From the NCBI RefSeq assembly GCF_004342265.1, contig NZ_SMCS01000001.1, positions 682,001 to 746,000 on the forward strand: DNA of 64,000 nucleotides, in the 5' to 3' direction. Under the pieces are notes generated by a model that saw only the letters and a program-made list of their open reading frames with translations, was not told the origin of the DNA and ran no database searches. Below are positions 1 to 20,930 of this stretch, piece by piece. Within the stretch, counting starts at the first letter, position 1. Every line of letters begins with the position of its first letter. Source of the stretch: Luteibacter rhizovicinus (GTDB lineage Bacteria; Pseudomonadota; Gammaproteobacteria; Xanthomonadales; Rhodanobacteraceae). The position numbers were made by a program, and so were the translations under genes.

Positions 1-1087
1 CCTGCGCGGCGAACAGGTTGAGGTAATAGAACGCTACGGCCAGCCGTACCGGCAGCCAGCGGGCGAGACGGGGACGCAGGCGTCCGGCGAGTACCAGGCC
101 GGCGGCGCATACGATGCCGAAGAACATCAGTGCATAGACCGCGTGGCGCGTAGCCAGCGCGGCGCTCGACAGCGTGAGGACGACGAGCATCCACGGCGCC
201 AGCAGACGCAGCAGCTTGTGACTGACGAAACGGAACCACAGCGGATTGCTCGCGGGCCAGATCAGCCAAGGCGCAAGCTGGACCAGCTGGTAGTTACCCG
301 CCAGCGTCCGGATCTTCCGTTTGCGTTCGGCGTCGGGATGCTGCGAAGGCTTGTCCCATGCGAGCGCGCGCGGCTCGAAAATCACGCGTTGCCCGGCGGC
401 CGCCACACGCATGGGAACGAGTACGTCGTCGAGTACCGTGCCCGCGGGCAGCGGGCTGTAAAGCTCGCGCCGCATCGCATACAGCGCACCGCTGACACCC
501 ACGGTGGACCCGGATTGGCTTTCCGCCTGCCGGATGATTTTTTCGTAGCGCCAGTATGCATCGACACCCTGCGCGAATCCGGTCAGCACGTTTTCCATAT
601 GCAGCTCGCCGCTGACGGCACCGACCGTGGGATCGGCCAGGTTCGCGACCAGTTCGCGCAGCGCGCCGGGCGACAGCTTCTGGCGAAGGTCGGTGAAGAG
701 CAGCACGTCGCCATGCGCGATCGCCACGGCGTCGTTGAGACAGGCGGCCTTACCGCGACGTGCGGGGTTGTCCAGTACGCGCACACGGAGGTCGCCGCAG
801 GTACGCGCAAGCGCGGCGGTCGCATCGCGGCAGCCGTCGCACGAAATGACGATGTCGATCAGTTCGGCGGGATAGTCGAGCGCGCGCAGATTGGAGAGCT
901 TCGCGCGTATCTGGCGCCCGCCGTCGTGGACGGCGATGACGACGGTCACGCTCGGCGTAATCGGTGCGCGCCGCACGGGCCGGGGCGATACCTTCGCCAG
1001 CGCCCACATCATCGCGGGATACCCTACGAAAACGTGGACGAGCAACGCCACGCAGCCCCAGCATGCCATGTGGGCCAGGAATGTCAT
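1..1087 (-). CDS. Family 2 glycosyltransferase, membrane-anchored (3' end outside window)
   Basis: This frame is open from an ATG at 1087 to the window edge, so the C-terminus is missing. An N-terminal hydrophobic helix (about residues 3-30) is followed by a GT-A fold: a TVVIAVHDGG strand near residue 47, a SCDGCRDAT segment, a TDLRQ motif where family 2 enzymes have the metal-binding DxD, and a TVLDDVLVP segment near residue 220. C-terminal hydrophobic helices begin near residue 300. A family 2 enzyme would transfer a sugar from a nucleotide sugar at the inner membrane; donor and acceptor cannot be read. A GGGGGG stretch 6 nt upstream can serve as ribosome binding site. It lies 31 bp downstream of the NRPS gene on the same strand, so it may glycosylate that product or belong to an adjacent polysaccharide locus. 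Confidence 0.82.
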   Translation of the reverse strand, partial: MTFLAHMACWGCVALLVHVFVGYPAMMWALAKVSPRPVRRAPITPSVTVVIAVHDGGRQIRAKLSNLRALDYPAELIDIVISCDGCRDATAALARTCGDLRVRVLDNPARRGKAACLNDAVAIAHGDVLLFTDLRQKLSPGALRELVANLADPTVGAVSGELHMENVLTGFAQGVDAYWRYEKIIRQAESQSGSTVGVSGALYAMRRELYSPLPAGTVLDDVLVPMRVAAAGQRVIFEPRALAWDKPSQHPDAERKRKIRTLAGNYQLVQLAPWLIWPASNPLWFRFVSHKLLRLLAPWMLVVLTLSSAALATRHAVYALMFFGIVCAAGLVLAGRLRPRLARWLPVRLAVAFYYLNLFAAQ

Positions 1088-1118: not shown

Positions 1119-4100
1119 CTATCGCCACCCGAAGAGTTTGCGCAAACCCGACTTCGGCTTGCGTGCCACTTGTTCGTCCGCTTTCGCCAGCTCCGCGGCG
1201 AGCGTTCCGAGCGTGCCGTTGGCTATGTCCAGCAGATTCAGCTGCACGCCGGTGGCCTGGCGGACGCGTCCGGCCATATCCACCGCCATCAGCGAATGAC
1301 CGCCCAGGTCGAAGAAGTTGTCGCCGGGATGGACGTCGCAGACGTCGAGCAGTTCTTCCCAAAGCTTCGCGAGCAGGGCTTCCGAGGGTGTGCGCGCGGC
1401 ACTGCGTGCCGTGGTCGCCATCGCCAGGTCGGCCACGGGTGTCCGGATTTCCATGGGGCGCATGACGCCATCGGCCAGTTCGCGCAGCGAGGCGACGCTC
1501 TGGGCCGGATCGCGTCCGACGCTGGCCAGCATCGACAGGTAACGGTCGCGCATCGCCGCCGCGGTTTCGGCGCGGAGAATATCGGCGTTATAGGTGACGC
1601 CACCGACCATACCCCGGGTGTTTTCGAGGAACCACAGTCCGAGATCTTCGGTGGCGCCGCTTTGGAACAGCAGGATCTGTTCGTGGTTCAGACCGCCCCA
1701 GTCGACGATGCGCTGGCGTGCGTCCTGGAATGAGAACAGCGCCTGGTACAACACCGTACCGCTGCCGTGGTGCACTTTCAGTTCGCGTTGCAGGTACTCC
1801 ATCGGCACGTCCGGATGACCGAAGCCTTCGAGCGCGGTCCGTTTCACGTAATGGACGAAGTCGACGAACGACATGTCCGGGTCGACGGTCACATGCAGCG
1901 GCAGGAGATTATTGAAATAGCCCATGACCGATTCGACTTCGGTCTGGTTGCGGCCGCGCACGGGCGTACCGATCACCAGATCGTCCTGCCGCGCCACGCC
2001 GCTCAGCAATATGTAGTAGAGGGCAAGCAGCGTCATGTTGAGCGTGGCATCGGCGGTGCGGGCCACTTCGTGCATCAGCTCCGTCAGCTCTTTCGAAACG
2101 CGGATCCATTCGGTCGCGCCCTTGCCGGACATACCTGGGCGGCGCGGCATATCGCTTGGCAACGCGCGTACGCTGCCGCAGCTGCTCAGGCGCTCGCGCC
2201 AGAAACTCAGCTGATCCTGGAACTGGGGACCTTGCAACCATTCGGCGTGCCATACGGCGAAATCGCCGTAGGTGACGGGAAGCGGCGGCAACGGCGAAGG
2301 CAGGTTTTGTGCGAACGCGCGGTACAGCGCGGACAGTTCGGCATACAGGATGTCGAACGACCAGCCGTCCCAGACAATGTGATGGGGCATGAAGAAGAAC
2401 GCGTGATCGTCGTCCGACAGACGGAACATCCGCGCGCTGAACAGCGGCGCGCGGGTCAGGTCGAACGGCGTGTCGGTCAGTTCCTGCAAGCGCTTCATCA
2501 GCGTCCGTTCGCGCTCGTGAGGTGCGAGCGCGGAGAGGTCTTCGGCGGGGAATAGCGCCGTGGCGAGCAGGGGTTCGACCACTTGCTCGATATCCTCGCC
2601 CTTGCGCCGGAACGCCGTACGCATGATGGGTTGCCGCGACACCAGAGCCGCAAAGGCCCGGTCGAACGCGTCTTCGTCGAGCGGCCCTCTCAGGCGATGG
2701 GCCGATGGCGCGTTATAGGTGACGCGGCCGGGTTGCATTTCTTCCAGAGCGAACAGACGGGCCTGCATCAGCGAGGCCGGTGCCTGGTCCTGATGGGGAC
2801 GACGGAGAATCGGCGGAGTTTCCTGCGCGCCGCCGATCTTCAGCAGGGCGATGGCGGCGGCGAGTTCCGCGATGGTGGGTGCGTCGAACAGCGTGCGGAA
2901 AGAAAGCGTGACGCCGAATTCGCGATTGAGGCGGGCGGTCAACTGCGCCGCCAGCAACGAATGACCGCCGAGCGCGAAGAAGTTGTCCCGTACGTCGAGG
3001 TCCGGTAGCGCGAGTATGGTTTCCATCGCCGCGGCGACCCGGCGTTCGTCGTCGTTGCGCGGCGCGGTCCGTTCGGCGTTCGCGGCGACGGACTGCACGG
3101 GCGGTGCGGGCAGCGATTTTCGATCGGTCTTGCCATTCGGCAGCAGCGGAATCGCAGGCAGCTGCATCAGGTGCTGCGGCAGCATGTAATCGGGTAGCCG
3201 CGTTTTCAGTTCGGTACGCAGGACACTTTCGTCGAACAGTGCCCCTTCGCTGGCGACCACATAGGCGACCAGCCGCACGTCGCCAGGACGATCTTCGCGA
3301 GCGAGCACGACAGCTCGGGCGACGTCGGAAAGATCGGCGAGCACGGATTCGATTTCGCCCAGTTCGATGCGATAACCACGCACTTTGACCTGGAAGTCGA
3401 GACGGCCCAGGTGTTCGAGTAACCCATTGGCCAGCCAGCGGCCACGGTCGCCGGTGCGATACATGCGTGCATCCGGATCGCCGGCGAACGGATCGCGCCC
3501 GAAGCGTTCGGCGTCGAGTTCGGGGCGGTCGAGATAGCCGAGCGAAACGCCGGCGCCGCCGATATAAATTTCACCCGGTACACCCAGCGGACAGGCCGAA
3601 CCGGCCTCGTCGAGGATGTGTACGGTGGTGTTGGCGATCGGCTTGCCGATGTAGATGCCTTCGCGAGGTGCCGACACTCTCCAGTAGGTGGAATAGACGG
3701 TGGTCTCGGTGGGACCGTATCCGTTCCATACCTCGCCGCAACGTTCGAGTAGCGCTTCGGCCAGATCGAGCGGCAGCGGTTCGCCGCCGGACACGGCGCG
3801 GAAGTTCGCATGTCCCACCCAGCCCGATTCGACCAGAATGCGCCAGCCAGCGGGCGTGGCCTGCATCATCGTGGCGTTGCTGCGTTCCACCAGATGGCGC
3901 AGTGCCGTGCCGTCGCGCACATCGTCGTGGTCGGCGATGACGATTTCGGCGCCGACGCACAGCGGCAACATCAACTCCATGAACGCGATATCGAACGACA
4001 GCGTCGTGACGGCGACCAGCCGGTCGTCCTCGGCGATGCCCGGTACGCGCTGCATGCTGGTAAGAAAGTTGGACGTGGCCCGGTGCGGCACGCGCACGCC

Positions 4101-6032
4101 TTTCGGCCTGCCGGTCGAACCCGAAGTAAAGATCAGGTAGGCGACCGACTCGGGCATGGCCGTCATACCGTCGCGCGACAGGCGGGTCTTCGGCAAGGAT
4201 TCGATCTCGACCTGATCGCGGGTCAACGAAAGGATGGCCCGGGTGGGGAATGGGAACGCCGTCGGCGCTTCGTCGTCGACGATCAGCGCGGCAAGCGCGG
4301 CGTCTTCCACCATGAAGGCCAGACGTTCGGCGGGGAACGACGGATCCAGCGGTACGTAGCCGGCACCCGCTTTGAGGACGCCGAGCACGGCGGCGACCAT
4401 GTCGGCTCCGCGCGGCAGCGACAGCCCGACGAGCGAGCCGCGACCCACGCCGCGCACGCGCAGGCCATGGGCGATCTGGTTCGCGCGCTGTTCCAGGTCG
4501 GCATAGTTCAGCCGTTCGGAACCGTGCCGCACGGCGGCGCGCGCGGGCGCACGGTCGGTCTGTGCCTCGAAGTATTCGTGGGCCAGCCGATCGGCCGGGA
4601 ACGGCGTCGGCACGGGCTGAAGGCCAGCCAGCGCTTCGCATGCGATTTCCGAAATCATGCCGAGCGAGCGCGCGGCGCTATCCGGAGCGGCGATGGCCGC
4701 ACGCAGGAGGGCTTCATAGGCGTCCAGCCACGCGGCGATCGTGGGCGCGCGGAACAGGTCGCGGTTGTACTGGCATTCCAGACGGATACCGCCGTCGACC
4801 TGCACGGCGTTGACGAACAGTTCGAAGTTTTCGTAGCGGCGTGCGTTGGCCGAGAACGTGAAACTGAGATCGGCGAAAGCGACCGTCGATTCGTCCAGCG
4901 CCTGATCGAGATTGAACAGGACGCTGACCAGGGGCAGGCGACCCGGGTCGCGCGGCAGGGAAAGACGCGCGAGCAGGCTGCCTATCGTGTATTGCTGATG
5001 ATCGAAGGCATTGAGCAGTCCGCCGCGAACCTGTTCGATCGCTTCGCTGAACGAACGCTCCGGATCGACGGCAGTACGCAGCGGCAGCACGTTCACGCAA
5101 TGACCGACCAGTGCGTCGTGGCCGCCTTCGGCCTGACCCGCGCAGGGAATGCCGATCACCAGATCCTGCTGTCCGGTCAGGCGTTCCAGCAGTACGGAGA
5201 ATCCGGCAAGCAAGGTCGCGTACAGGCTCGCGCCGTGTTTCGCGCCCATGCGCTTGATGCCCGCTACCAGGGTGGGGTCGAGCATCCGGTCTTCGCGATG
5301 CGAAGCGAACGTACGGTGGCGCGGACGGGCACGGTCGGTCGGCAGATCGAGGACGGGAGCCTGTCCCGAGAACTGGCCGACCCAGTATCTTTCGGCATCG
5401 TACGCGTCGTCGGTCATCTGTCGCGCGGCTTCTTCCAGCGCGAACCCGGCGAACGAATCGGCGGGCGCCGGGGCGAAGCCGTCCGCGACGCGTTCGCCAT
5501 ACATCGTGGCGAGATCGTTAATCAGCACACCGAACGACCAGCCGTCGCAGACGATGTGATGCGCGGTGAAGATGAGCAGGTGATCGGTCGACCCCAGACG
5601 CAGCAGTTCGGCCCGCACCAGCGGACCGTGTTCGAGGTCGAACGGCGTCGTGACCGCCTGGTCGAGTGCCGTGGCGATCGCTGCCTCGCGGACAGCCAGG
5701 CTCGCCCCGGAAAGATCGGTCAACGGGCAGGGCAGGTCGCGCTGTGCGGCGATGCACAGTTCTTCGCCGTCGGCGCCGATCGTCGAGCGAAGCGCTTCAT
5801 GGCGATCAAGCAGGCCTTGCAACGCGGCAAGCAGTGCGGCGACATCGAGCGAGCCGGCCAGGTGCAGCGACACCGATTCGTTATACGAGAGAGAGGCCTC
5901 GCACGACAGCGTCGATGCCAGCCAGATCTCGCGCTGCGGCGCGGTCGTGGGAACGACGCGCGCGAGCGCAGCGTCGGCGAAAGGATCGTAGTCGACGGCC
6001 AGACCGGCCGCCATCACCTCGTTCGAACTCAT
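1119..6032 (-). CDS. Non-ribosomal peptide synthetase, C-A-PCP-C-PCP, no thioesterase
   Basis: The protein has 1637 aa. In order: condensation domain with HHIVCDGWS near residue 159; adenylation domain with FTSGSTGRPKG near 637, GYGPTETT and a PNGKTDRKSL lysine motif; carrier domain with LGGHSLL near 1022; second condensation domain with intact HHIVWDGWS near 1217; second carrier with LGGHSLM near 1579. The second module has no adenylation domain and there is no terminal thioesterase. Reading the specificity pocket against PheA gives roughly D-I-M-Q-V-G-G-V-Y, loosely nearest to glycine-type codes; this assignment is weak. The ATG at 6032 overlaps the upstream hybrid gene's TGA by 4 nt (ATGA), so the two are translationally coupled. 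C1 should accept the chain from the aminotransferase end of that hybrid. Product release must come from elsewhere. Confidence 0.95.
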   Translation of the reverse strand: MSSNEVMAAGLAVDYDPFADAALARVVPTTAPQREIWLASTLSCEASLSYNESVSLHLAGSLDVAALLAALQGLLDRHEALRSTIGADGEELCIAAQRDLPCPLTDLSGASLAVREAAIATALDQAVTTPFDLEHGPLVRAELLRLGSTDHLLIFTAHHIVCDGWSFGVLINDLATMYGERVADGFAPAPADSFAGFALEEAARQMTDDAYDAERYWVGQFSGQAPVLDLPTDRARPRHRTFASHREDRMLDPTLVAGIKRMGAKHGASLYATLLAGFSVLLERLTGQQDLVIGIPCAGQAEGGHDALVGHCVNVLPLRTAVDPERSFSEAIEQVRGGLLNAFDHQQYTIGSLLARLSLPRDPGRLPLVSVLFNLDQALDESTVAFADLSFTFSANARRYENFELFVNAVQVDGGIRLECQYNRDLFRAPTIAAWLDAYEALLRAAIAAPDSAARSLGMISEIACEALAGLQPVPTPFPADRLAHEYFEAQTDRAPARAAVRHGSERLNYADLEQRANQIAHGLRVRGVGRGSLVGLSLPRGADMVAAVLGVLKAGAGYVPLDPSFPAERLAFMVEDAALAALIVDDEAPTAFPFPTRAILSLTRDQVEIESLPKTRLSRDGMTAMPESVAYLIFTSGSTGRPKGVRVPHRATSNFLTSMQRVPGIAEDDRLVAVTTLSFDIAFMELMLPLCVGAEIVIADHDDVRDGTALRHLVERSNATMMQATPAGWRILVESGWVGHANFRAVSGGEPLPLDLAEALLERCGEVWNGYGPTETTVYSTYWRVSAPREGIYIGKPIANTTVHILDEAGSACPLGVPGEIYIGGAGVSLGYLDRPELDAERFGRDPFAGDPDARMYRTGDRGRWLANGLLEHLGRLDFQVKVRGYRIELGEIESVLADLSDVARAVVLAREDRPGDVRLVAYVVASEGALFDESVLRTELKTRLPDYMLPQHLMQLPAIPLLPNGKTDRKSLPAPPVQSVAANAERTAPRNDDERRVAAAMETILALPDLDVRDNFFALGGHSLLAAQLTARLNREFGVTLSFRTLFDAPTIAELAAAIALLKIGGAQETPPILRRPHQDQAPASLMQARLFALEEMQPGRVTYNAPSAHRLRGPLDEDAFDRAFAALVSRQPIMRTAFRRKGEDIEQVVEPLLATALFPAEDLSALAPHERERTLMKRLQELTDTPFDLTRAPLFSARMFRLSDDDHAFFFMPHHIVWDGWSFDILYAELSALYRAFAQNLPSPLPPLPVTYGDFAVWHAEWLQGPQFQDQLSFWRERLSSCGSVRALPSDMPRRPGMSGKGATEWIRVSKELTELMHEVARTADATLNMTLLALYYILLSGVARQDDLVIGTPVRGRNQTEVESVMGYFNNLLPLHVTVDPDMSFVDFVHYVKRTALEGFGHPDVPMEYLQRELKVHHGSGTVLYQALFSFQDARQRIVDWGGLNHEQILLFQSGATEDLGLWFLENTRGMVGGVTYNADILRAETAAAMRDRYLSMLASVGRDPAQSVASLRELADGVMRPMEIRTPVADLAMATTARSAARTPSEALLAKLWEELLDVCDVHPGDNFFDLGGHSLMAVDMAGRVRQATGVQLNLLDIANGTLGTLAAELAKADEQVARKPKSGLRKLFGWR

Positions 6033-9000
6033 GCGCTGACCCTCATGAACTTGCCCGGGACATCGGGATTGGGAACGAACCACGCCGGGCTTCCGTCGGC
6101 ATCGCGCCCGAGGCGCGCACCCGCGACTGGCGGGTTGTCGGCGTCGAGCGCACGCGCGTCTATCCGGCGCCTGGGCAGGAATTCGGCTTCCTGCAATTCG
6201 AGTACGGCGTCCTTGAAGGCTTTGGCGATGGCGGCAAAGTCCGCCTCGCTGTGTGCCGTGGTGAAGAAACAGGGAAAGTTGTCCAGGATGTGGATGCCGC
6301 GGCTGCGCATCATCGCGAACAGCAAGTCCTGCAGGGGGTGGTCTTCGAGGAAGCTGGTCTTCCACACGGAGGTGTAATGCACGACCTTGATCGGCGCGCC
6401 GACACCGGTGCAGAACATGTTCAGCTCGTCGACGAAACGTGCCGTCCGAGCGTTAAGGCCTTCCTGCAAGGCACCGCCTTCCGTCGCGAGGTGTTCGAGC
6501 ACCGCATGCGCGGCAGCCAGCGCGAGCGGGTGCCGCACGAACGTCCCGGCGAAGTAGGTGACGCCGACGGTGGGAATGGAATCGTCGCCGAACTGCCAGT
6601 GACCGCCATCCAGCGCGTCCATGAAGCGCCGTTTGCCGGCGATGACGCCGATGGGAAAACCGCCGCCCACGACCTTGCCATACGACGCCAGGTCCGCATC
6701 GATACCGAGCATCGCCTGCGCACCGCGCGGATGGGTGCGGAAGCCGGTCACCACTTCGTCGAAGATCAGCAGGGCGCCGGCGTCTTCCGTAATCGCGCGC
6801 AGTTCCTGCAGGAATTCGCGCGGCTGGAAATCGGGCCGGCGGCTCTGCACCGGTTCGACCAGCACGGCGGCGATGGTGGAGGCGCGCTCGCGGATGATGG
6901 CCAGCGATTCGGGTGTGCCGTAATCGAGGACCAGGACGTGTTCGGACGTGTTGCGCAGGATGCCTGGCGCGGCCGGCACCGAACGGAGCTTCTTCGTACC
7001 GCGTACGATCACTTCGTCGAAGATGCCGTGATAGGAACCGGTGAAGATCACCAGCGTGTCGCGGCCGGTCACGGTACGTGCGATGCGTACCGTACCCATC
7101 ACCGCTTCGGAACCGGTATTGCACAATGCCGCCCGGTCGAAGCCGGTCAGGTCGCATATCTGCCGGGCTACTATGCCGGCCAGCGGATGCTGCGGGCCGA
7201 TTTCGTAGCCGAGTTCAAGCTGACGGCGCACGGCGTCGATGACGAAATCGGGCTGCCAGCCGAACAGGTTCATGCCGAAGCCGTTCAGTGCGTCGACGTA
7301 TTCGTTGCCATCCAGATCCCAGACTTTCGATCCGCGCGAACGCTCGACGACGATCTGGTAGATCATTTCCTTCAGCAGCGGACGGAAACCGTTTACCACG
7401 CGCGGGTCGGCCAGGTGCGGACGGTGTTCCTCGGTGTATTCCTTCGAGCGGCGCGTGCGCGCGATATAACGCTTCATGAAAGCATCGAGGCGGGCGCGCT
7501 GCCGGGTCGTCAGCTCGGTCGACGTCGAATGGATGCGCGCGATGGCACCGAAAGCTTTCTTTACGTCGTACGTCGTATGCGCCAGTGCGACTTCTTCGGT
7601 GTCGGCCGCGGGCTCGGGTGCGTTCGGGACAGCGGCCATGGCGACGGGTGCCACCGTGGCAGGCGCCGACGTCATACGCACTGGCACGCTGGCCGGTGTT
7701 CCGGCGAGCAGCGCCAATTGCTGCTGCATGATCTGCATCTGCTGCTGGATGACATCCTGCACGAGATTGCCGCTGGCGGCGATGGGCGCCATGGAAGCGA
7801 CGGTGGCGGCAACGGGCGTTGCGATCACGGCGACCGGCGCGGCGACGACGGCTTCCGCTTCCGGGGGCAACAGGCGATCGATATGCGCGGCGAGTCGTCC
7901 GAACGACGAGCATGCTTCCATCAGTTCGCGGAACGTGATCTTCAGTGCGTAGGTCTTTTGCAGTTGCAACGCCACCTGGGTCAGCGCGAGGGAGTCGAGC
8001 CCCAGTTCGACGAAATTCGCGTCGATCGACGCGCCGTCGAACTCGGTGCCGGATACGTCTTCGAATAAGGCGGTCAGTTCGGCGACCAAACGCACCGGGC
8101 GGGTGCTGGCGGCGGAAGGATGGGCGGCCATGGATGGCTCCGGCAGGGATGGGGCGGAAAGGATGGAATGTGCGGTGGCTGGCAGCGGCAGCGCGACGAC
8201 GTTCGAACCGTCCGGGCTACCGGCGACGCGCGCGGGAGCGTCGATCCAGTGCCGGCGGCGCTCGAACGGATACGTGGGCAGGCGCACGCGGAAACGACGT
8301 TCGCGACGGTCGAGCGAGGCCACGTCGACATCGACGCCGGCACTCCAGAGTTGACCGATGGCGTCGAGCCAGGCGCTGCGTTCCAGCGCCGGTGAGTCGG
8401 CCAGCGACGCGAGCGCAAGGCGCCCACGCGCACGGGTGTGCTGACGCGTAAGCAGGCTCAGTGTCGCGCGCGGCCCCACTTCGAGGAAGATGCGTCCCTC
8501 GTCGTCGAGCTGGGTATCAAGCGCCCCGGAAAAGCGAACCGTGCCGCGCAGATGGCGCGTCCAGTAATCGGCGGACATCGCCTCGTTGTCGGTCAGGGTC
8601 ATACCGGTCAGCGTGGATACGATCGGTATGTCCGGGGCATTCAGTACGATCGCCGCTACGTAGTCCCGGAACGGCGCAAGCGCCGGTTCCATCATGGCCG
8701 AATGGAAAGCGTGCGACGTATGCAGTATCCGGCAGGCGATGCCGGCGGCTTCGAGTTCGTTGCGGAACGCGTCGACCCGGGCGGTTTCGCCCGAGACCAC
8801 GCATGCCGTGGGTGCGTTCTGGGCGGCCAGCGACAGGCCGTCGGGCAGTCGCGCGAGGAGCGTGTCGGCATCGAGCCGTACCGACAGCATCGATCCGGCA
8901 GGCAACGCCTGCATCAACCGGCCGCGCCGTGCGACCAGTCGTGCGCCGTCTTCGAGCGACATCACACCGGCCAGCACGGCGGCGACGAATTCGCCGACGC

Positions 9001-12000
9001 TGTGACCGATCATGGCATCGGGTTGGACGCCAATGCTCATCCAGAGTTTCGCCATGGCGTATTCGAGCGCGAACGTCGCCGGTTGCGTGAGGCTGGTGGC
9101 GCGTAAGGCATCGGCGTCGTCGGCGAACATGCGCTCGCGCAGATCGAAGCCGAGTTCGTCGTTCAGACAGGTGGCGCACGCGTCGAGCGCGTCGCGGAAG
9201 GCAGGCTCGCTCGCATAGAGTTCGCGTCCCATGCCGGGGTATTGGGCACCTTGCCCGGGGAAGAGGAATACGATCGGTGCCGCGCTGCTCTGTGCGGCGC
9301 GGATCGGTGGCGCCGTATTCGTATCCGCCAGGCGGCGGGCAGTGTCGGTTATGTCATTGGCAACGATCCAGCTGCGCTGTGCGAAGAGCTTGCGGCCGGT
9401 GGCCAGCGTGAGGGCCACATCGGCGAGATTGGCCTCCGGCGTGTCGGCCAGATGGGCACCCAGCGCGATCCATGCTTTTCCGACAGCCGCTTCGCTACGC
9501 GCTGATATCAGTAATAGTTGAGGGCCTTGCGCCGCATCGGAGGGCTCGCGATGCGGTGCTTCTTCCATGACCACGTGCGCATTGGTACCGCCCACGCCGA
9601 ACGAACTGACGCCCGCGCGACGCGGACCGTCGCCGTGCTCCCAGGGCCGCAACGTGGCGTTGACGACGAAGGGCGAGCGATCGAGACCGAGTTTCGGATT
9701 GGCGGTGCGGAAATGCAGGGACGGCGGCAGCTGGCGTTCGGCGAGCGACAGCGCGGTCTTGATGACGCCCGTTGCGCCGGCAGCCATGACCAGATGGCCG
9801 ACGTTGCTCTTTACCGACCCGATGGCGCAGAAACCCTGGTCGTCGGTTTCGCGCCGGAATGCCTTGATAAGCCCTTCGATTTCGATGGGGTCGCCGAGCG
9901 GGGTCGCGGTGCCATGGGTTTCGACGTAGGAAATCGAGCGGGCTTCGACGCCCGCGACATCCAGCGCCGCGGCAATGACCGCCGCCTGGCCCGCGCTGCT
10001 CGGTGCGGTGAAGCTCGCCTTGAGCCCGCCGTCATTATTGATCGCCGCACCGCGCAGCACCGCATAAACCGGATCGCCGTCCCGCAACGCATCGGACAGG
10101 CGCTTGAGCAGAACCACCGCCGCGCCGTCGCTGAATACCGTGCCGCGCGCGTCCTCGTCGAAGCTGCGCGTATGGCCATCGGGCGACAGCATCGAACCTT
10201 CCTGTGCGACATAACCGCTACGCGACGGGCAGGTAATGGACGAGCCGCCGGCGAGCGCCATGTCGCAATGGCCCGCGCGCAACGCATCGAACGCCTGCGC
10301 GATGGCTACCAGCGACGTGGAGCACGCCGTGTTCATGCTGATGGCCGGACCAGTGAGGTTGAGCTTGTGCGCGACGCGGGTGGTCAGGTAATCCTTTTCG
10401 TTGCCCAGCATCACCTGGAACGCGCCGAGTTTGGCGATGAGGTCGGGCCGCGTACTGATGTGGCGCTGGAAGTAAGTGGCGTTGTGCATGCCGCCGAACA
10501 CGCCTACCGGGATCTTCTGCGCATCGGGTACATAACCGCCGCGCTCCATGCATTCCCAGCACAGCTCCAGGAATACGCGCTGCTGCGGATCGGTCAGCTC
10601 GGCCTCGCGTGGCGACATGCCGAAGAACGCCGCGTCGAAGTCTTCGACGCCATCGACGACGCCACGTGCCGCGACGTAGTACGGATCGTTGCGCTCGTCG
10701 GGCGGGATGCCCGGATCGAGGCCGTCTTCGCCGAAGAAGGTGATGGATTCGCGTCCGGCGACGAGGTTGTCCCAGAAGGCCTCGACGCTGGATGCGCCGG
10801 GGAAGCGGCCGGCCATGGCAATAATCGCGACAGGCTCGGCCTCCGTGTGCCGTGCGCGGCGCGGTGCAGGCGCCATAGGTTCCACGCCGCGTTCGATACC
10901 TGCGGCGATGGCGGCCGGGGTCGGCTCGCCGAAGAAACTCGCGATAGTCGGTTTTGTCGATACCGCGGCGTGGATGCGTGCGACAGCGGCGGTCGCCAGT
11001 AGCGAGCTTCCGCCGAGTTCGAAGAAATGATCGTGACGGCCGATCTCGTCGATACCGAGGATGTCGGCGAATATCTCGCAGAGCGCGCGTTCGTTGTCGC
11101 CCTGGGCGGGGACGTACGCACCCGCCAGTTCGGGACGCCGTGCGTCCGGTGCCGGCAGCGCGCGCCGGTCCAGCTTGCCGTTGGCGGTGATCGGCAACGT
11201 GTCGAGCCGGATATAGACCGTCGGAACCATGAATTCCGGAAGTGCTTTGTACAGACGATCGCGCAGCATGCGCGCCGTGAGTGTGTCTTCGTCGGCGACG
11301 TAGTAGGCGACGAGGCGTTTCTGCCCGGGGCGATCCTCGCGTGCTAGCACCGCCGCCGCGCGTACGGATGGCGTAGCCTGCAACGCACTTTCGACTTCGC
11401 CCAGCTCGATGCGGTAACCGCGGATCTTGACCTGCCCGTCGCGACGCCCGACGAAGTCGATGCTGCCGTCGGCGCGCCAGCGGACGAGGTCGCCCGTGCG
11501 GTACAGGCGATCGCCTTCGTTACCGAAGACATCGGGAAGAAAGCGCTCGGCGTTCAGTTCGGGACGGGCGAGATAGCCGCGCGCGACACCGGCACCGCCG
11601 ATATAGAGTTCGCCGGTGACACCGACGGGTACCGGTTCGCCCCGCGCATTCAGTACATACAGCGTGGTGTCGGCGATGGGGCAGCCCACGGGTATGGCGC
11701 GCGCGTCGACGTCCAGTTCGCGCGGAATCGGCCAGGTCGTGGCGAAGGTCGTGCATTCGGTGGGACCGTAGCCGTTGGTGATGAGGGTATCGGGCAACGC
11801 GGCAAGCGCCTTGCGGATATGTGGCACGGACAGCGCTTCGCCGCCGGTCAGCACATGTTTCAGGCCGGCGAGCTTGCGTGCGTTGTCGTCGACGATGGCG
11901 TTGAACAGGGCCGCAGTCAGCCAAGCGATCTGCGCACCGTGTTGCCCGATCGTGTCTTCGAGGCCGCAACCCGTGGGTATCTTCTCGTGGTGTACGACGC

Positions 12001-13291
12001 AGGTACCGCCATTGAGCAACGGCGCCCAGATTTCGAATGTCGCGGCGTCGAAGCCAAGGGGTGCGGCATGCAGCACGCGGGAATGCGTGCGCAGATCGAC
12101 GTAGTCGACATCGCGGACGAGACGGATGATCGAGCGATGTTCGATCTGCGCGCCTTTCGGCGTGCCGGTCGAGCCGGAGGTGTACATCACGTAGGCCAGT
12201 GCGTGGCCGTTCCGTGCAAGGGATACAGGCGATGTCTCGTGTTCGAGATCGTCGAGTGCCAGCACCGTCGCGGGCAGTCCCTCGGGCGCCGGCATGCCGC
12301 ATACGACGACATGCGTCGCGGACGCATCGGACAGCACGAAGGCGAGACGATCGGCGGGATAGGTGGGGTCCAGCGGCAGATAAGCAGCGCCTGCCTTGAG
12401 CATGCCGAGCATCGCGACGATGGCTTCGGGCGAACGCTCCGCCAGCAGGCCGACAGGTGTGCCGGGCGGGATGCCGGCCGCGACGAGGCCAGCTGCGACG
12501 CATCCGGCGCGCCGGTCGAGTTCGGCGTACGTCATCGATCCGCCCGCCCATGCAACGGCCACGGCATCGGGATGCGCGGCGGCGACGTCGGCGAACAGGC
12601 CGTGGACGGAATCGTCGTCGCGGCGGGGTTTCGCCGTGGCGTTCCATTCGACCAGCATGCGTGTGCGTTCGTGGGCGTCGAAGACGTCGACGTCGCGTAG
12701 CGGCCGGTCGGCGGCAGTGCACAGGGAATCGATCACTTGCACGACGCAGCCGGCCATCAGGTCGATCGCCGCATCGGTAAAGGGTGCGGGAAAGTCGACC
12801 TGCAGACGCGCGGGCATCGCGGTCAGCAGACGCCAGCGGCTACCGCACTGCGGGTCGTTGGCGGATTGGGCCTTGTCGCAGGGCGGACGCGTGTCGGTAT
12901 CGACGACCGTCCACGGCGCGGGGCCCGATGCGCAGGCGGCGGCGTTCTGTATGGCACGCAGACTGGCACCCAGCCATGTATCGCGCGAGCCGTTGTCGGG
13001 TACGTCCAGCGTGGCGGTGTACGAGGTGCCGGCGCATGCGCGCCACGCAGCGACGGCGGCCGCGCCGGTCAGGCGCGATTCGACCAGCGCCAGTACCGCG
13101 CAGAACACGACGTCGGACGTGACGCCATAAGCGAGCGCGCAGCGTTCCATGCCGTCGACCGTGGCTTCGTCGAGTGCGTACTCGTAGTGCTTCCAGCGCG
13201 CGGTGACCTCGTCGGCGTGACAGGGCAATACGTCGACTAAGGCTGGAATGGCTTCGTCGTCGGTCCGGTTGGCGATCATGAACGCGTTCAT
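6029..13291 (-). CDS. Hybrid NRPS-PKS with internal aminotransferase (partial C, A, PCP, KS, AT, ACP, AMT)
   Basis: The protein has 2420 aa. Residues about 1-220 look like the C-terminal lobe of a condensation domain without HHxxxDG. The adenylation domain follows (YTSGSTGTPKG near 367, NGYGPTE, ANGKLDRRAL); its pocket reads D-A-F-W-L-G-G-T-F, the valine-type code. Next are a PCP (ELGGSSLL, ~760), a ketosynthase (TACSTS ~989, ETHGTATPLGD, NVGHL), an acyltransferase (GHSVGE ~1432; HAFH ~1525, the malonyl-type signature), an ACP (LGLDSLAL ~1762), a Gln/Ala-rich linker, and a class III aminotransferase like the AMT of mycosubtilin/iturin synthetases (SYGKVVGGG lysine ~2205). No ketoreductase is present, which leaves a beta-keto group for transamination. 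A GGAGAGAG site precedes the ATG; another in-frame ATG lies five codons on. Confidence 0.95.
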   Translation of the reverse strand: MNAFMIANRTDDEAIPALVDVLPCHADEVTARWKHYEYALDEATVDGMERCALAYGVTSDVVFCAVLALVESRLTGAAAVAAWRACAGTSYTATLDVPDNGSRDTWLGASLRAIQNAAACASGPAPWTVVDTDTRPPCDKAQSANDPQCGSRWRLLTAMPARLQVDFPAPFTDAAIDLMAGCVVQVIDSLCTAADRPLRDVDVFDAHERTRMLVEWNATAKPRRDDDSVHGLFADVAAAHPDAVAVAWAGGSMTYAELDRRAGCVAAGLVAAGIPPGTPVGLLAERSPEAIVAMLGMLKAGAAYLPLDPTYPADRLAFVLSDASATHVVVCGMPAPEGLPATVLALDDLEHETSPVSLARNGHALAYVMYTSGSTGTPKGAQIEHRSIIRLVRDVDYVDLRTHSRVLHAAPLGFDAATFEIWAPLLNGGTCVVHHEKIPTGCGLEDTIGQHGAQIAWLTAALFNAIVDDNARKLAGLKHVLTGGEALSVPHIRKALAALPDTLITNGYGPTECTTFATTWPIPRELDVDARAIPVGCPIADTTLYVLNARGEPVPVGVTGELYIGGAGVARGYLARPELNAERFLPDVFGNEGDRLYRTGDLVRWRADGSIDFVGRRDGQVKIRGYRIELGEVESALQATPSVRAAAVLAREDRPGQKRLVAYYVADEDTLTARMLRDRLYKALPEFMVPTVYIRLDTLPITANGKLDRRALPAPDARRPELAGAYVPAQGDNERALCEIFADILGIDEIGRHDHFFELGGSSLLATAAVARIHAAVSTKPTIASFFGEPTPAAIAAGIERGVEPMAPAPRRARHTEAEPVAIIAMAGRFPGASSVEAFWDNLVAGRESITFFGEDGLDPGIPPDERNDPYYVAARGVVDGVEDFDAAFFGMSPREAELTDPQQRVFLELCWECMERGGYVPDAQKIPVGVFGGMHNATYFQRHISTRPDLIAKLGAFQVMLGNEKDYLTTRVAHKLNLTGPAISMNTACSTSLVAIAQAFDALRAGHCDMALAGGSSITCPSRSGYVAQEGSMLSPDGHTRSFDEDARGTVFSDGAAVVLLKRLSDALRDGDPVYAVLRGAAINNDGGLKASFTAPSSAGQAAVIAAALDVAGVEARSISYVETHGTATPLGDPIEIEGLIKAFRRETDDQGFCAIGSVKSNVGHLVMAAGATGVIKTALSLAERQLPPSLHFRTANPKLGLDRSPFVVNATLRPWEHGDGPRRAGVSSFGVGGTNAHVVMEEAPHREPSDAAQGPQLLLISARSEAAVGKAWIALGAHLADTPEANLADVALTLATGRKLFAQRSWIVANDITDTARRLADTNTAPPIRAAQSSAAPIVFLFPGQGAQYPGMGRELYASEPAFRDALDACATCLNDELGFDLRERMFADDADALRATSLTQPATFALEYAMAKLWMSIGVQPDAMIGHSVGEFVAAVLAGVMSLEDGARLVARRGRLMQALPAGSMLSVRLDADTLLARLPDGLSLAAQNAPTACVVSGETARVDAFRNELEAAGIACRILHTSHAFHSAMMEPALAPFRDYVAAIVLNAPDIPIVSTLTGMTLTDNEAMSADYWTRHLRGTVRFSGALDTQLDDEGRIFLEVGPRATLSLLTRQHTRARGRLALASLADSPALERSAWLDAIGQLWSAGVDVDVASLDRRERRFRVRLPTYPFERRRHWIDAPARVAGSPDGSNVVALPLPATAHSILSAPSLPEPSMAAHPSAASTRPVRLVAELTALFEDVSGTEFDGASIDANFVELGLDSLALTQVALQLQKTYALKITFRELMEACSSFGRLAAHIDRLLPPEAEAVVAAPVAVIATPVAATVASMAPIAASGNLVQDVIQQQMQIMQQQLALLAGTPASVPVRMTSAPATVAPVAMAAVPNAPEPAADTEEVALAHTTYDVKKAFGAIARIHSTSTELTTRQRARLDAFMKRYIARTRRSKEYTEEHRPHLADPRVVNGFRPLLKEMIYQIVVERSRGSKVWDLDGNEYVDALNGFGMNLFGWQPDFVIDAVRRQLELGYEIGPQHPLAGIVARQICDLTGFDRAALCNTGSEAVMGTVRIARTVTGRDTLVIFTGSYHGIFDEVIVRGTKKLRSVPAAPGILRNTSEHVLVLDYGTPESLAIIRERASTIAAVLVEPVQSRRPDFQPREFLQELRAITEDAGALLIFDEVVTGFRTHPRGAQAMLGIDADLASYGKVVGGGFPIGVIAGKRRFMDALDGGHWQFGDDSIPTVGVTYFAGTFVRHPLALAAAHAVLEHLATEGGALQEGLNARTARFVDELNMFCTGVGAPIKVVHYTSVWKTSFLEDHPLQDLLFAMMRSRGIHILDNFPCFFTTAHSEADFAAIAKAFKDAVLELQEAEFLPRRRIDARALDADNPPVAGARLGRDADGSPAWFVPNPDVPGKFMRVSA

Positions 13292-13503: not shown

Positions 13504-14454
13504 CTAGGCCGTTTGGTCTATGCCGTGGCGATGGAAGGCTTCGAGACGTCGATGCATGCCCTGACCGAGTCGCGCTATGCCGCATTTTGTGCGGTCGACC
13601 AGTGCATTCGCACCGATTGGACGGGGATGCAGGCCCAGGCCGCGCATGCGCGCGTTGAAGCGATGCGCATCGGTCCACATGTCCGAGCGCCGCGTGCGGA
13701 ACGTGAGCGCGAGGGACACGGAAAGCTCCGACGCGGTATGCACGCGATGCGGCGCGATGAAGGGATGATGGACGCCCAGCCCGGGCGTGAGTTCGTAGGT
13801 CATCGCGCGCGCCTCGATCCCGGCGCTGTAGCGCGGACGTCCGCCGATATGGGCCAGCAGATTGTCTTTTTCCTCGGACGTCATGATGGCGTCGTCGGTA
13901 GGGTCCCACAGGTGCACGGTCTTGCGACCCTGCAACTGCAGGAGGAAATTCATTTCCCGGTCCATGTGATACGGCGTGACCGAATCGCGGGTGGAAATGA
14001 AAATATAGGTCGAATACCAGCTGATCCCCGGATCGAGCGGATCGATCCGCGCGGCGACTTCGCCGATCAGTCCTTCGATCACCGGCGCGAATTCCTCGTC
14101 GCATTCGGGATTGTTGATGCAGATGTACGCGTGGTTGTCCTCGAAACGATCCAGGACCTGTTCCAGCGTGAGATTCGCCTTGTAGCGGTCGTACGACGTA
14201 TCGAGGTCGGCATCGCCGGGAATATGGCCGGTGCGGTACAGGATGCTTTCGCGCGGCATGCGCCGGCACAGCGCGAACAGATGCGCGAGCGAGAACAGCG
14301 GATGCGTAGTGAGGCGATGTCCGATCAGGAAGGGCTCGCGGTTGTACGAGGCAGTCACGACCTCGTCGTCGAAGGCGAGCAGAGGGGACGGTTCCGCGCG
14401 GCCCCGCGCCACGAGTTCCTCGTAACGCTTCATCGGCAGGAAGCTACCCAACAT
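13504..14454 (-). CDS. JmjC/cupin-like Fe(II)/2-oxoglutarate-dependent oxygenase
   Basis: The protein has 316 aa. A double-stranded beta-helix core contains the facial-triad HxD in PYHMDREMNF (about residues 160-170) and a distal histidine in APHRVHTASE (about 233-243), preceded by a WYSTYIFISTRDSVTPYH strand typical of cupin-like/JmjC hydroxylases. Such enzymes hydroxylate amino-acid side chains on proteins or carrier-bound peptides. It is first in the minus-strand run into the hybrid NRPS-PKS gene, 212 bp upstream of it, so a tailoring role (for example beta-hydroxylation of an aminoacyl or peptidyl carrier) is a reasonable inference. GAGGATCG precedes the ATG. Family membership is fairly secure, the substrate is not. 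Confidence 0.8.
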   Translation of the reverse strand: MLGSFLPMKRYEELVARGRAEPSPLLAFDDEVVTASYNREPFLIGHRLTTHPLFSLAHLFALCRRMPRESILYRTGHIPGDADLDTSYDRYKANLTLEQVLDRFEDNHAYICINNPECDEEFAPVIEGLIGEVAARIDPLDPGISWYSTYIFISTRDSVTPYHMDREMNFLLQLQGRKTVHLWDPTDDAIMTSEEKDNLLAHIGGRPRYSAGIEARAMTYELTPGLGVHHPFIAPHRVHTASELSVSLALTFRTRRSDMWTDAHRFNARMRGLGLHPRPIGANALVDRTKCGIARLGQGMHRRLEAFHRHGIDQTA

Positions 14455-14544
14455 GGTTCGATCCTCGCGCCATCGATGCCGGCGTATCAGGTGACGCTCC
14501 GTGAGTGCGTGGGTTGAAACGGTCCCGGTTACCGGCTTCTGGTG

Positions 14545-15270
14545 TCAGCGGGACTGGAAGGCGAACAGGAAAAGCATGGCGCCCTGGACCGGCGCGGCCG
14601 TCCAGGTGACGTGGTACGTACCCGGCCCATCGACCTCGCGGGACGCTACGGCAACCTGCACGCCGCTTTCGTCGGGAAGGTCGGTGAAGCGATCGATCGT
14701 GGCGAATCCATCGCCCGGTTCGGCGGTCATGCGTTTGACCCCGCCATCGCCCCACCAGACGGCGACCAGCGTGGCCGGTCCGGTGGTGGTGACGTTCCCG
14801 CTGACGACTTCGAGCGCGGGGTCGGCATAGGTCTTCGCGACGTCCCTGAGCACCGTGGCGTTGCGTACTTCGACAAAGGGAATGGATATTTCGCCTGGCG
14901 CATTGCCGCGCTTGTCGATACGCACCGTATGACTCGCACCGCCGCGCGCCGCCGTGACGACATAGGCCTTCACATCGAAACGGTCGCCATAGCCATTGCC
15001 ATAGGGCATGCCACCAACGGATTTCCAGCGATTGGCGTAGCTGTCGACTGGCGTCGCATCATTCGCGGAATAGCCGCCGTAAAGCACCAGCAGCGAGCTT
15101 CCGGAGGGCTGCGTCGCGATGGCTTGCGTGACGGCAGGCGTGACGCCAAGCCCTTCGCCCACACCGAGCAGCGTGTGCGCGCCGAGCGTCGGGCGCGCGG
15201 CGTCTCCGCCGGGCACGGCCATGGGCAGCGCGAACGCGAGGGTGGTGAGCAGGGCAAGGACGCTATTCAC
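14545..15270 (-). CDS. Secreted protein of unknown function
   Basis: I do not recognise the family. A GTG start at 15270 gives 241 aa beginning with a typical signal peptide (hydrophobic VLALLTTLAFALPMAV, then a small-residue cleavage region). The mature part is rich in beta-strand, Gly, Thr and Val, has no cysteine pattern, and ends in FAFQSR. An upstream ATG at 15342 keeps the frame, but it would place an unusual polar extension before the signal and overlap the divergent J-domain gene, so the GTG was preferred; neither start has a strong ribosome site. It ends 90 bp before the oxygenase gene on the same strand. The sequence does not show whether it belongs to the biosynthetic locus. Confidence 0.6.
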   Translation of the reverse strand: MNSVLALLTTLAFALPMAVPGGDAARPTLGAHTLLGVGEGLGVTPAVTQAIATQPSGSSLLVLYGGYSANDATPVDSYANRWKSVGGMPYGNGYGDRFDVKAYVVTAARGGASHTVRIDKRGNAPGEISIPFVEVRNATVLRDVAKTYADPALEVVSGNVTTTGPATLVAVWWGDGGVKRMTAEPGDGFATIDRFTDLPDESGVQVAVASREVDGPGTYHVTWTAAPVQGAMLFLFAFQSR

Positions 15271-15989: not shown

Positions 15990-16012
15990 ATCGCCGGTGC
16001 GCGGCATGATCA

Positions 16013-17413
16013 TTACCGTGCGCCACGACCGAACAGAATGACTTCCACGGTCTCGATCAGGATCACCATGTCGAGCAGGAGGTTGTGGTTCTTCACGTAG
16101 AACAGGTCGTACTTGAGCTTTTCCGCCGCGTCTTCTTCCGACGCGCCGTACGGGTAACTGAGTTGCGCCCAACCCGCCAGGCCCGGTTTGAGGCAATGGC
16201 GAAGGCTGTAATAACGGATCTTCGTCGCAAGGTCGGCCACGAACTGCGGACGTTCCGGGCGCGGTCCGACGATGCTCATTTCGCCTTTGAGCACGTTCCA
16301 TAGCTGCGGCAGTTCGTCGAAACGCAGCTTGCGGCAGATACGGCCCACTCGCGTCACGCGGTTGTCGCTCTGGCAGGCCCAGCGCGCGACACCATCGCAT
16401 TCGGCATCGGTGCGCATGCTGCGGAATTTGTACAGCCAGAATGTCTTGCCGTGCTCGCCGACGCGTTCCTGCAGATAGAGGACCGGCTGGCCGCGACCGG
16501 ATTCGAGCCGTATCGCCAGCGCCACGGCCAGCATCAGCGGCCAGAAAAGCACGAGCATCGTGCCTGCGGCCAGCAGGTCGAAGCAGCGCTTGCCCAGCAG
16601 ATGGATCGGCGTGGCGTTGAAGCCTCGCGAGAAAACCAGCCACGAAGGATCGAGCATCGACAGCTGCAAGCGTCCGGATTCGCGCTCGAAAAAGGTAGTG
16701 AGGTCGGTGATCGTGACGCCCGCCTGCCGGCATTCGAGCAGCGCATCCATGGGAAGCCGGCCGCGCCGGTCGTCGACACCCACCACGATTTCGTCGACCT
16801 GGTAGCGCGCGGCGATCAGGTGCAGCGGCATATCGGACGTCAGTACCAGTTGCTCGGGCACGACGACCGGATCGTTCGGGCAGCGCAGGTAACCGACGAC
16901 GGTGAAGCCGCGACGATCGGAGCGCCGCCGCATGCGGTTGTGGATCTGCGCGGCGCGATCGCCGGCGCCAAGGATGAGTACGCGACGCTTCAGTGCCTCG
17001 ATTTCCACCAGTCGCATGAAAGCGATGCGAAAGATGGCGACCGTGAGGAAACCGAGCACCAGCGCCATCGACAGCACGCCGCGCCCGACATAAGCCTGCG
17101 GAATGGCGTAATACACGACCACCAGCCCGATACCGCCCAGCACAAAAGCGACCGCCTGCCGCGCGACGATGCCGAGCCAGTTGGTGCGCAGATGCGTGCG
17201 GTACTCGCCAAGCGCGAGCATGCCCAGGAAGATGACGATGGCGAATACCGCCGAACGCTGCGGCAGGTGTCGCGTGAATTCGGCGAGGTCGTCCGGGTAC
17301 AGGAAGAAGCGCAGGTACATCGCGACATTCAGCGATCCCGCCAACAGGAGTAGTTCGCACAGAGCGAGCAGTAATAGCCAGCGCACGATGCGCAGCCGCA
17401 GAATCCGAAGCAT
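16013..17413 (-). CDS. Undecaprenyl-phosphate sugar-1-phosphate transferase, exopolysaccharide type
   Basis: The protein has 466 aa. Four to five N-terminal membrane helices lead into a CoA-binding-like Rossmann segment (RRVLILGAGDRAAQI), one further helix near residue 275, and the conserved bacterial sugar transferase domain: KRCFDLLAAG, LYLQERVGEHGKTFWLYKFRSM, LRFDELPQLWNVLKGEMSIVGPRPERP and KPGLAGWAQL. This polyprenyl-phosphate hexose-1-P transferase family loads the first sugar on undecaprenyl phosphate at the inner membrane; the layout resembles the TIGR03013/EpsH-linked and WcaJ-like enzymes. The ATG at 17413 has AAAGGGG upstream. The flanking genes are not a full polysaccharide cluster, although sugar-nucleotide genes lie at 19.9-22.2 kb. 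Confidence 0.92.
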   Translation of the reverse strand: MLRILRLRIVRWLLLLALCELLLLAGSLNVAMYLRFFLYPDDLAEFTRHLPQRSAVFAIVIFLGMLALGEYRTHLRTNWLGIVARQAVAFVLGGIGLVVVYYAIPQAYVGRGVLSMALVLGFLTVAIFRIAFMRLVEIEALKRRVLILGAGDRAAQIHNRMRRRSDRRGFTVVGYLRCPNDPVVVPEQLVLTSDMPLHLIAARYQVDEIVVGVDDRRGRLPMDALLECRQAGVTITDLTTFFERESGRLQLSMLDPSWLVFSRGFNATPIHLLGKRCFDLLAAGTMLVLFWPLMLAVALAIRLESGRGQPVLYLQERVGEHGKTFWLYKFRSMRTDAECDGVARWACQSDNRVTRVGRICRKLRFDELPQLWNVLKGEMSIVGPRPERPQFVADLATKIRYYSLRHCLKPGLAGWAQLSYPYGASEEDAAEKLKYDLFYVKNHNLLLDMVILIETVEVILFGRGAR

Positions 17414-17855: not shown

Positions 17856-17870
17856 TCCGGATGCGGCGGT

Positions 17871-19872: not shown

Positions 19873-19904
19873 GAGGCCTCCCAGATGACTAAGCAGTGCG
19901 GGGC

Positions 19905-20915: not shown

Positions 20916-20930
20916 GACCGGCCGACTCGT

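What the first reader, a model, noticed from the sequence alone, without database searches (positions are those of the whole stretch)
6029..13291. Valine-loading NRPS-PKS-aminotransferase hybrid predicted to make a beta,gamma-diamino acid unit
Seen: A domain pocket D-A-F-W-L-G-G-T-F, then PCP, KS, malonyl-type AT, ACP and a class III aminotransferase, with no ketoreductase. Known: the same KS-AT-ACP-AMT order in mycosubtilin/iturin synthetases turns a beta-keto thioester into a beta-amino one. Inference: valine extended by malonyl and transaminated gives a 3,4-diamino-5-methylhexanoyl-type unit, then passed to the downstream NRPS. Here an aminoacyl starter, not a fatty acid, precedes the AMT, which I do not recognise from a known pathway.
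Basis: partly seen in the sequence, partly recalled or inferred. Interest (0 to 1): 0.82.

Follow-up and report, generated by a model that had tools for sequence, protein, structure and literature searches.

The report
Diamino-acid peptide synthetase inside polysaccharide cluster
A soil bacterium carries a well-conserved enzyme assembly line that probably turns valine into an unusual two-amine building block and joins it to one or two small amino acids, and it sits inside a gene cluster for a secreted polysaccharide, which hints at an unknown small peptide linked to the cell surface.

Summary
In detail: window 6029-13291 (-) encodes A-PCP-KS-AT-ACP-aminotransferase, 2420 aa, no ketoreductase. 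The A pocket is DAFWLGGTFK, a printed valine code; the closest solved relative of the aminotransferase is that of mycosubtilin synthase MycA (E 1e-120). A valine-plus-malonyl unit aminated to 3,4-diamino-5-methylhexanoyl is well supported by sequence; the product is unproven. Aminoacyl-starter layouts of this kind were catalogued in 2013, without a product.

Most likely: a conserved diamino-acyl peptide released or transferred by that hydrolase. Linkage to polysaccharide is inferred.

The parts
6029..13291 (-). PKS-AMT gene, 2420 aa: N-terminal remnant, A(Val), PCP, KS, AT(malonyl), ACP, class III aminotransferase
11174..12595 (-). Adenylation domain A1, pocket DAFWLGGTFK (valine type)
9710..10837 (-). 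Ketosynthase domain, C/H/H intact
8438..9271 (-). Acyltransferase domain, malonyl-type motif HAFHS
6170..7516 (-). MycA-type aminotransferase domain, PLP lysine and aspartate intact
1119..6032 (-). NRPS2, 1637 aa: C-A-PCP-C-PCP, no TE; A2 pocket DIMQVGGVYK; terminal module lacks an A domain
13504..14454 (-). Cupin_8/JmjC-type (Fe(II)/2-oxoglutarate oxygenase-like) protein next to the PKS gene; HxD...H triad (H163, D165, H236) invariant in 46 of 46
14545..15270 (-). Conserved protein without a Pfam match (33 of 81 loci incl. own); signal-peptide-like N-terminus by eye only
16013..17413 (-). EpsB_2 polyprenyl glycosylphosphotransferase, TIGR03013 547 bits (cut-off 393)
22406..23134 (-). Sfp-type 4'-phosphopantetheinyl transferase, likely activates the carrier domains
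2..1051 (-). Family 2 glycosyltransferase right after NRPS2 (runs past the window's left end); first of the polysaccharide genes that continue left of the window
18214..22208 (-). GMC oxidoreductase, sugar epimerase and UDP-glucose dehydrogenase genes of the polysaccharide cluster

Best explanation
A conserved NRPS-PKS line. A1 loads valine on PCP1 (predicted); KS-AT-ACP adds malonyl to give a gamma-amino-beta-keto thioester (predicted); the MycA-type AMT converts the beta-ketone to an amine, giving 3,4-diamino-5-methylhexanoyl-ACP (predicted from close homology to a characterised domain). NRPS2 then adds a small residue chosen by A2 (Gly-like pocket in most relatives; the window's own pocket deviates) and, through its second C-PCP, probably a second residue loaded by A2 across modules, because the terminal A domain has been lost (inferred). 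A JmjC-type protein next door probably hydroxylates a carrier-bound intermediate (inferred). The chain has no cis thioesterase; the Cys-type alpha/beta hydrolase encoded about 32 kb away beside the polysaccharide export genes, with its nucleophile-less partner, most likely releases the chain or transfers it (inferred). In Luteibacter and relatives the product serves, or decorates, an exopolysaccharide (inferred from linkage only).
For: Domain order and invariant active sites. Val code printed; of 72 A1 domains 56 Val-type, 9 Pro-type, 3 Thr-type, 4 other. AMT: MycA 6kfm E 1.1e-120, next family 4.6e-49. Conservation: 23 of 23 genus genomes sampled, 43 of 101 genomes incl. own. Terminal A domain of NRPS2 in 80 loci: intact 26, degenerate 17, absent 30, unknown 7 (L106 moved from degenerate to absent on re-reading); all 26 intact ones have DILQ pockets, and in 21 of the 26 the first A domain has one too; at least 12 state changes on a 68-locus tree; decay seen directly. 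Release: a hyd2-type domain is fused after the last PCP in L092 and L094-L096 (185-205 bits to a model of that family); Thioesterase PF00975 ends the line in L106 and L118. hyd1 in 39 of 43 PKS-AMT genomes and 0 of 58 others, Fisher 8e-24; by genus 13 of 15 against 0 of 36, 2e-10. hyd1 Cys82 and His216 in 30 of 30. In 7 of 7 line-bearing genomes whose export operon end was mapped the pair adjoins the outer-membrane protein gene. Purifying selection.
Against: No metabolite, mass or assay. Own A2 pocket DIMQVGGVYK matches no code I could check; in 5 of the 26 loci with two intact A domains the first pocket is not DILQ (L075, L088, L090 Ser-like; L077, L087 DIMQ like the window), so 'same residue twice' is not certain. 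Loading by A2 across modules is untested. hyd1 and hyd2 score below the NCBIfam cut-offs (74 of 168 and 79 of 203 bits), so naming them after XrtA hydrolases is by best match only. Four PKS-AMT genomes lack hyd1 (G045, G049, G056, G060). The line also occurs without this polysaccharide's Wzy (8 of 43 PKS-AMT genomes) and, in L101 and L105, between what look like housekeeping genes (read by eye); 7 of 58 genomes without the line have the Wzy.
Confidence: 0.6

Rival explanations
1. An ordinary secreted small molecule (antibiotic, metal binder or signal) made by a hybrid line whose polysaccharide neighbours are coincidental; the hydrolases are plain thioesterases.
For: In Variovorax, Xenophilus and Luteimonas loci (L101, L105, L107, L094-L096) none of the window's downstream polysaccharide genes is found in the 10-kb flanks. 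Thioesterase domains end the line in L106 and L118, so free release is likely in some relatives. Extra NRPS modules in L079, L081, L091 look like diversification of a metabolite. L065 and L066 have both a deacetylase hit and the hydrolases in their flanks.
Against: 34 of 35 genomes with both have PKS-AMT and Wzy on one contig within 50 kb, 32 within 15 kb; the hydrolase pair adjoins the polysaccharide export genes in 7 of 7 mapped line-bearing genomes and was not found in the fetched stretches of 7 polysaccharide-only genomes; Thiomonas L109 has XrtA chain-length and kinase genes beside the line.
Confidence: 0.45
2. The AMT is bypassed and the beta-keto-gamma-amino chain cyclises to a tetramic acid or passes on as a ketone.
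For: Gamma-amino-beta-keto thioesters are chemically prone to cyclise (recalled).
Against: AMT has the lowest dN of the four domains compared in all four comparisons, with Lys and Asp invariant in 81 of 81.
Confidence: 0.1
3. The starter is not valine but a related or upstream-supplied unit, the N-terminal remnant marking a lost or trans-acting condensation step.
For: The pre-A segment is about 230 residues of no known domain; L103 and L121 keep a full C domain before A.
Against: No C-domain score in the window's segment (0.9 bits); Val-type code in 56 of 72.
Confidence: 0.1

Closest known systems
Mycosubtilin/iturin synthetase MycA (KS-AT-ACP-AMT; AMT structures 6kfm, 6kfr, 6kfu)
   Same: Order KS-AT-ACP-AMT, no KR, AMT of the same subfamily
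   Different: Starter is A-PCP loading an amino acid, not an acyl ligase loading a fatty acid (the MycA layout is recalled and from PMC3870968 passages); the NRPS is a separate gene; no lipid starter seen
Uncharacterised A-CP-KS-AT-CP-PLP1 proteins listed in PMC3870968, Table 2 (Pedobacter heparinus C6XWU5; also within Salinisphaera F7QBN5 and Thiorhodococcus G2E5C9)
   Same: Aminoacyl starter, PKS module and class III AMT
   Different: Listed as domain layouts with predicted monomers; no product, partners or polysaccharide link in the section read
XrtA/PEP-CTERM exopolysaccharide loci (TIGR03007, 03013, 03018, 03027, 03099-03101)
   Same: Export protein, chain-length determinant and glycosylphosphotransferase over cut-off; a two-hydrolase pair
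   Different: No exosortase found in the genome, no TIGR03099 decarboxylase at the threshold used; a full NRPS-PKS line is present, where the 8 XrtA loci read have an A-like AMP ligase and a PLP decarboxylase
One-module NRPS genes overlapping a glycosyltransferase in Xanthomonas and Alcanivorax (PMC3849588, passages seen)
   Same: NRPS next to a glycosyltransferase, with a PPTase beside it in Alcanivorax
   Different: Single C-A-PCP-TE module; no PKS, AMT or polysaccharide operon in the passages seen

Membership tests
MycA-type beta-amino PKS module | KS-AT-ACP-AMT order without ketoreductase | tested here: met
MycA-type beta-amino PKS module | AMT of the MycA subfamily with PLP residues intact | tested here: met
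   6kfm E 1e-120, next family 5e-49; residues 81 of 81
MycA-type beta-amino PKS module | Amination of a beta-ketothioester | not testable with these tools
   needs enzyme assay
Iturin-family lipopeptide synthetase | Fatty-acyl ligase starter and heptapeptide NRPS (features recalled) | tested here: not met
   A-PCP starter with Val pocket and a two-module NRPS
XrtA/PEP-CTERM exopolysaccharide system | Export protein TIGR03027, chain length TIGR03007, EpsB_2 TIGR03013 over cut-off | tested here: met
   205>180, 377>279, 547>393 bits
XrtA/PEP-CTERM exopolysaccharide system | Exosortase | tested here: not met
   no PF09721 match at E<=0.001 in own genome; 27 of 101 genomes have one, most of them weak and partial
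XrtA/PEP-CTERM exopolysaccharide system | Hydrolase 1 and 2 (TIGR03100, TIGR03101) over cut-off | tested here: not met
   best matches but 74<168 and 79<203 bits
XrtA/PEP-CTERM exopolysaccharide system | PLP decarboxylase TIGR03099 | tested here: not met
   no match in own genome at E<=1e-80; 33 of 274 class genomes have one

The most novel reading that the evidence does not exclude
The line is the sugar-decorating arm of a new class of exopolysaccharide: it builds a short cationic peptide (3,4-diamino-5-methylhexanoyl plus one or two small residues) that the Cys-type hydrolase pair passes from the carrier protein onto the polysaccharide or its lipid-linked precursor. Relatives of the pair do the same job for the AMP-ligase/decarboxylase system of XrtA loci, so peptide or amine capping would be a general, unrecognised step of XrtA-like polysaccharide assembly.
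Probability: 0.28. Interest if true: 0.85.

Novelty: new variant of a known kind. Interest (0 to 1): 0.63.

Why it matters
A hybrid assembly line kept by every sampled genome of a genus is less likely to be a dispensable antibiotic cluster. If its product is tied to a surface polysaccharide, it would join modular peptide synthesis to polysaccharide assembly, suggest a function for two hydrolase families that NCBIfam names only by their association with exosortase A, and offer a natural series of A-domain decay (intact, degenerate, deleted) for studying how one A domain can come to serve two modules.

Tried and rejected
Exosortase linkage: tested and rejected; no match in the own genome or the 22 other genus genomes sampled. 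Mutual exclusion of PKS-AMT and TIGR03099 in the class sample: no overlap (8 incl. own, and 33, of 274), but too few to mean anything. Clustering of neighbours on all ORFs was swamped by antisense ORFs and replaced by a codon-scored set. First regex for pockets failed on many rows and was replaced by an alignment. Comparison with linear gramicidin LgrA A domains did not settle specificity. Papers: ten searches listed no paper that I could recognise, from titles and abstract starts, as dealing with this cluster or its product; the words hydrolase, ligase, decarboxylase and nonribosomal do not occur in the held main text of Haft 2006, PMC1569441. Not run: antiSMASH/MIBiG (no such tool).

Mended on re-checking: L106 had been scored 'degenerate' but has only a ~100-residue stub before a PCP and TE, so it now counts as absent; the three-state total on the tree stays 12. 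Three, not four, polysaccharide-only genomes show outer-membrane protein next to epimerase. Both hydrolases are seen in 5 of 8 XrtA loci, not 6.

Rows dropped: 7 of 80 loci had no complete NRPS2 and are 'unknown' in the A-domain count; the tree used 68 of 80 loci; catalytic-residue counts used only domains long enough to align.
Full report
OBSERVATION. The gene at window 6029-13291 (minus) is real and complete: 2420 aa from ATG 13291 to the stop at 6029. Pfam gives A, PCP, KS, AT, ACP and class III aminotransferase in this order, and no KR. The A pocket is DAFWLGGTFK, printed as a valine code for MlcM in PMC9113097 (passage seen). The same table prints DVQYIAHVVK as Pro and DFWNVGMVHK as Thr. 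The best solved relative of the AMT is MycA's aminotransferase (6kfm, 1.1e-120); the next family, glutamate-1-semialdehyde aminomutase, is at 4.6e-49. All catalytic residues checked are invariant among the relatives aligned (KS 71 of 71, AT 72 of 72, AMT 81 of 81). Against four relatives the AMT has the lowest dN of four domains each time; its dN/dS is about 0.07-0.14, the lowest in three of four (KS is slightly lower against L056), with dS near 1.

THE PARTNER GENE. NRPS2 (1119-6032, minus) starts inside the stop of the PKS gene (ATGA overlap) and reads C-A-PCP-C-PCP with no TE. Both C domains keep HHxxxDG. In 80 named relatives (L042-L121) the terminal module's A domain is intact in 26, degenerate in 17 (404-532 residues between C and PCP but core motifs gone), absent in 30 and unknown in 7. 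Sixteen of the 17 degenerate ones give meaningless pocket letters on the alignment and L069 is in fragments. All 26 intact ones have a DILQ pocket; in 21 of these 26 the first A domain of NRPS2 has one too, in 3 it is Ser-like and in 2 DIMQ. Of the first A domains, 48 of 74 loci are DILQ and 16 of 74 DIMQ like the window's own. That DILQ marks glycine, and DVWH serine, is recalled, not read in a call. On a tree of 68 loci the three states need at least 12 changes. Repeated loss of the A domain with C and PCP kept suggests that A2 serves both carriers; the five loci with unlike pockets speak against a simple 'same residue twice'.

DISTRIBUTION. The AMT is found at E<=1e-70 in 43 of 101 genomes (own included), among them 23 of 23 sampled genomes of the own genus at 82-100% identity. 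The genus is Luteibacter by a matching contig (G020 C7 and NZ_JACHYH010000007.1, both 195,028 bases with the match at the same place). Named relatives cover Dyella, Rhodanobacter, Frateuria, Dokdonella, Lysobacter, Luteimonas, Pseudoxanthomonas, Variovorax, Xenophilus, Thiomonas and others. In an even sample of the class 8 of 274 genomes (own included) have it at E<=1e-90.

SURROUNDINGS. Upstream lies a Cupin_8/JmjC-type protein (13504-14454; 28.8 bits, just over the Pfam cut-off of 27.4) with an invariant HxD...H triad (46 of 46), distantly related to JMJD5 and FIH hydroxylases (E 7e-5 and weaker). Members of this family, of two types about 25% identical to each other, lie in 41 of 80 loci plus the window. 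An Sfp-type PPTase is at 22406-23134. The line sits in a polysaccharide cluster that runs from about C1:650,400 to 704,000 of the genome: export protein, chain-length determinant and EpsB_2 are over the NCBIfam XrtA cut-offs; a Wzy-like ligase, glycosyltransferases and deacetylases match Pfam, a PaaK-like ligase is a best match below cut-off, and the Wzx-like protein is named by eye. No exosortase was found. EpsB_2 relatives (over 40% identity) lie in 33 of 80 loci within the 10-kb flanks; Thiomonas L109 has XrtA chain-length and kinase genes beside its line.

THE HYDROLASE PAIR. Two alpha/beta hydrolase genes lie in the flanks of 29 (hyd1) and 24 (hyd2) of 80 loci, mostly right after NRPS2 or its PPTase, upstream in L117. 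In L092 and L094-L096 a hyd2-type domain is fused after the last PCP (185-205 bits to a model of the family), which ties this family to the end of the line. In L106 and L118 a Thioesterase domain ends it (93 and 85 bits). In the window's genome the pair lies about 32 kb away beside the export genes, between the outer-membrane protein and an epimerase gene. hyd1 occurs in 39 of 101 genomes, all with PKS-AMT; 4 of 43 PKS-AMT genomes lack it, and 0 of 58 others have it (Fisher 8e-24; by genus 13 of 15 against 0 of 36, 2e-10). These genomes are related, so the p-values overstate independence. The hyd2 query is less clean: at E<=1e-6 it matches 57 of 101 genomes, weakly in many without the line. 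Distances on one contig vary: 29 of 39 hyd1 genes lie within 50 kb of the AMT, 3 farther, 7 on another contig.

A NATURAL COMPARISON. In six line-bearing genomes (own, G018, G032, G042, G055, G058) the export operon runs outer-membrane protein, hyd2, hyd1, epimerase; in a seventh, G025, the pair adjoins the outer-membrane protein but no epimerase follows. Seven genomes have the polysaccharide's Wzy without PKS-AMT; none has hyd1 at the threshold, and no hyd1 or hyd2 family member was found in their fetched stretches. In three of them (G026, G047, G051) outer-membrane protein and epimerase are direct neighbours; in G089 the epimerase is not beside the outer-membrane protein, and in G064, G073 and G082 the comparison could not be made from the stretches fetched.

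THE HYDROLASES THEMSELVES. hyd1 has a G-x-C elbow with Cys82 and His216 in 30 of 30 aligned; hyd2 has no Ser or Cys nucleophile pattern there. Their solved relatives are general alpha/beta hydrolases and esterases (hyd1 only), which does not tell hydrolysis from transfer. Of 8 XrtA loci chosen by their TIGR03099 decarboxylase, 5 hold relatives of both hydrolases (one as a single frame), 1 holds one at the edge of the stretch, 2 hold none; all 8 have an A-like AMP ligase match. The shared factor that I infer is a carrier-bound amino-acyl chain in a polysaccharide cluster; a carrier protein in those XrtA loci was not looked for.

MECHANISM. Shown: the genes, their order, conservation, selection and co-occurrence. 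Predicted by close homology: valine activation, malonyl extension, beta-amination. Inferred: cross-module loading by A2, hydroxylation by the JmjC-type protein, release or transfer by hyd1, link to polysaccharide. Wzy and PKS-AMT lie on one contig within 50 kb in 34 of 35 genomes that have both, 32 of them within 15 kb. Against the link: the line exists without that Wzy in 8 of 43 genomes, and in L101 (Xenophilus) and L105 (Variovorax) it lies between genes that read, by eye, as housekeeping genes.

NOVELTY. The AMT module is a known kind, and aminoacyl-starter layouts were listed in 2013 (PMC3870968, section 7 read). Ten paper searches listed nothing that I could recognise as naming a product or function for this line; most subscription papers are outside that library. 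What appears new is the conserved two-gene family, the terminal A-domain decay series, and the tie between the line, the hydrolase pair and XrtA-like polysaccharide loci. I file it as a new variant of a known kind.

Noticed in passing
G000:C1:about 950,000-977,671 (outside the window): An open frame of 8898 aa with NRPS- and PKS-like matches near a contig end; another large hybrid system in the same genome.
   Followed up: no
window 35390-37510 (+): Protein with an XVIPCD domain (PF20410), known (recalled) as the secretion tag of X-type IV effectors used between bacteria.
   Followed up: no
window 40129-48771 (+): 2880-aa protein with GH94 and glycoamylase domains, resembling a cyclic beta-glucan synthase (recalled).
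   Followed up: no
window 23171-24742 (-): MCRA family protein (oleate hydratase type, recalled) next to the PPTase, at the edge of the polysaccharide cluster.
   Followed up: no
window 51360-58967 (-): Two TonB-dependent receptors and a GH127 beta-L-arabinofuranosidase in a row, perhaps a sugar-uptake locus.
   Followed up: no
L038 (G091 C77) 1-19900: Two sets of PKS-like hits and two hydrolase pairs in one 20-kb stretch, but only one AMT match in that genome at E<=1e-70: a rearranged or duplicated version of the system in another family.
   Followed up: partly
L073, L085, L093-L096, L103, L106, L108: First A domain carries a proline-type code instead of valine (9 of 72 A1 domains), so related species may make a pyrrolidine analogue.
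   Followed up: partly
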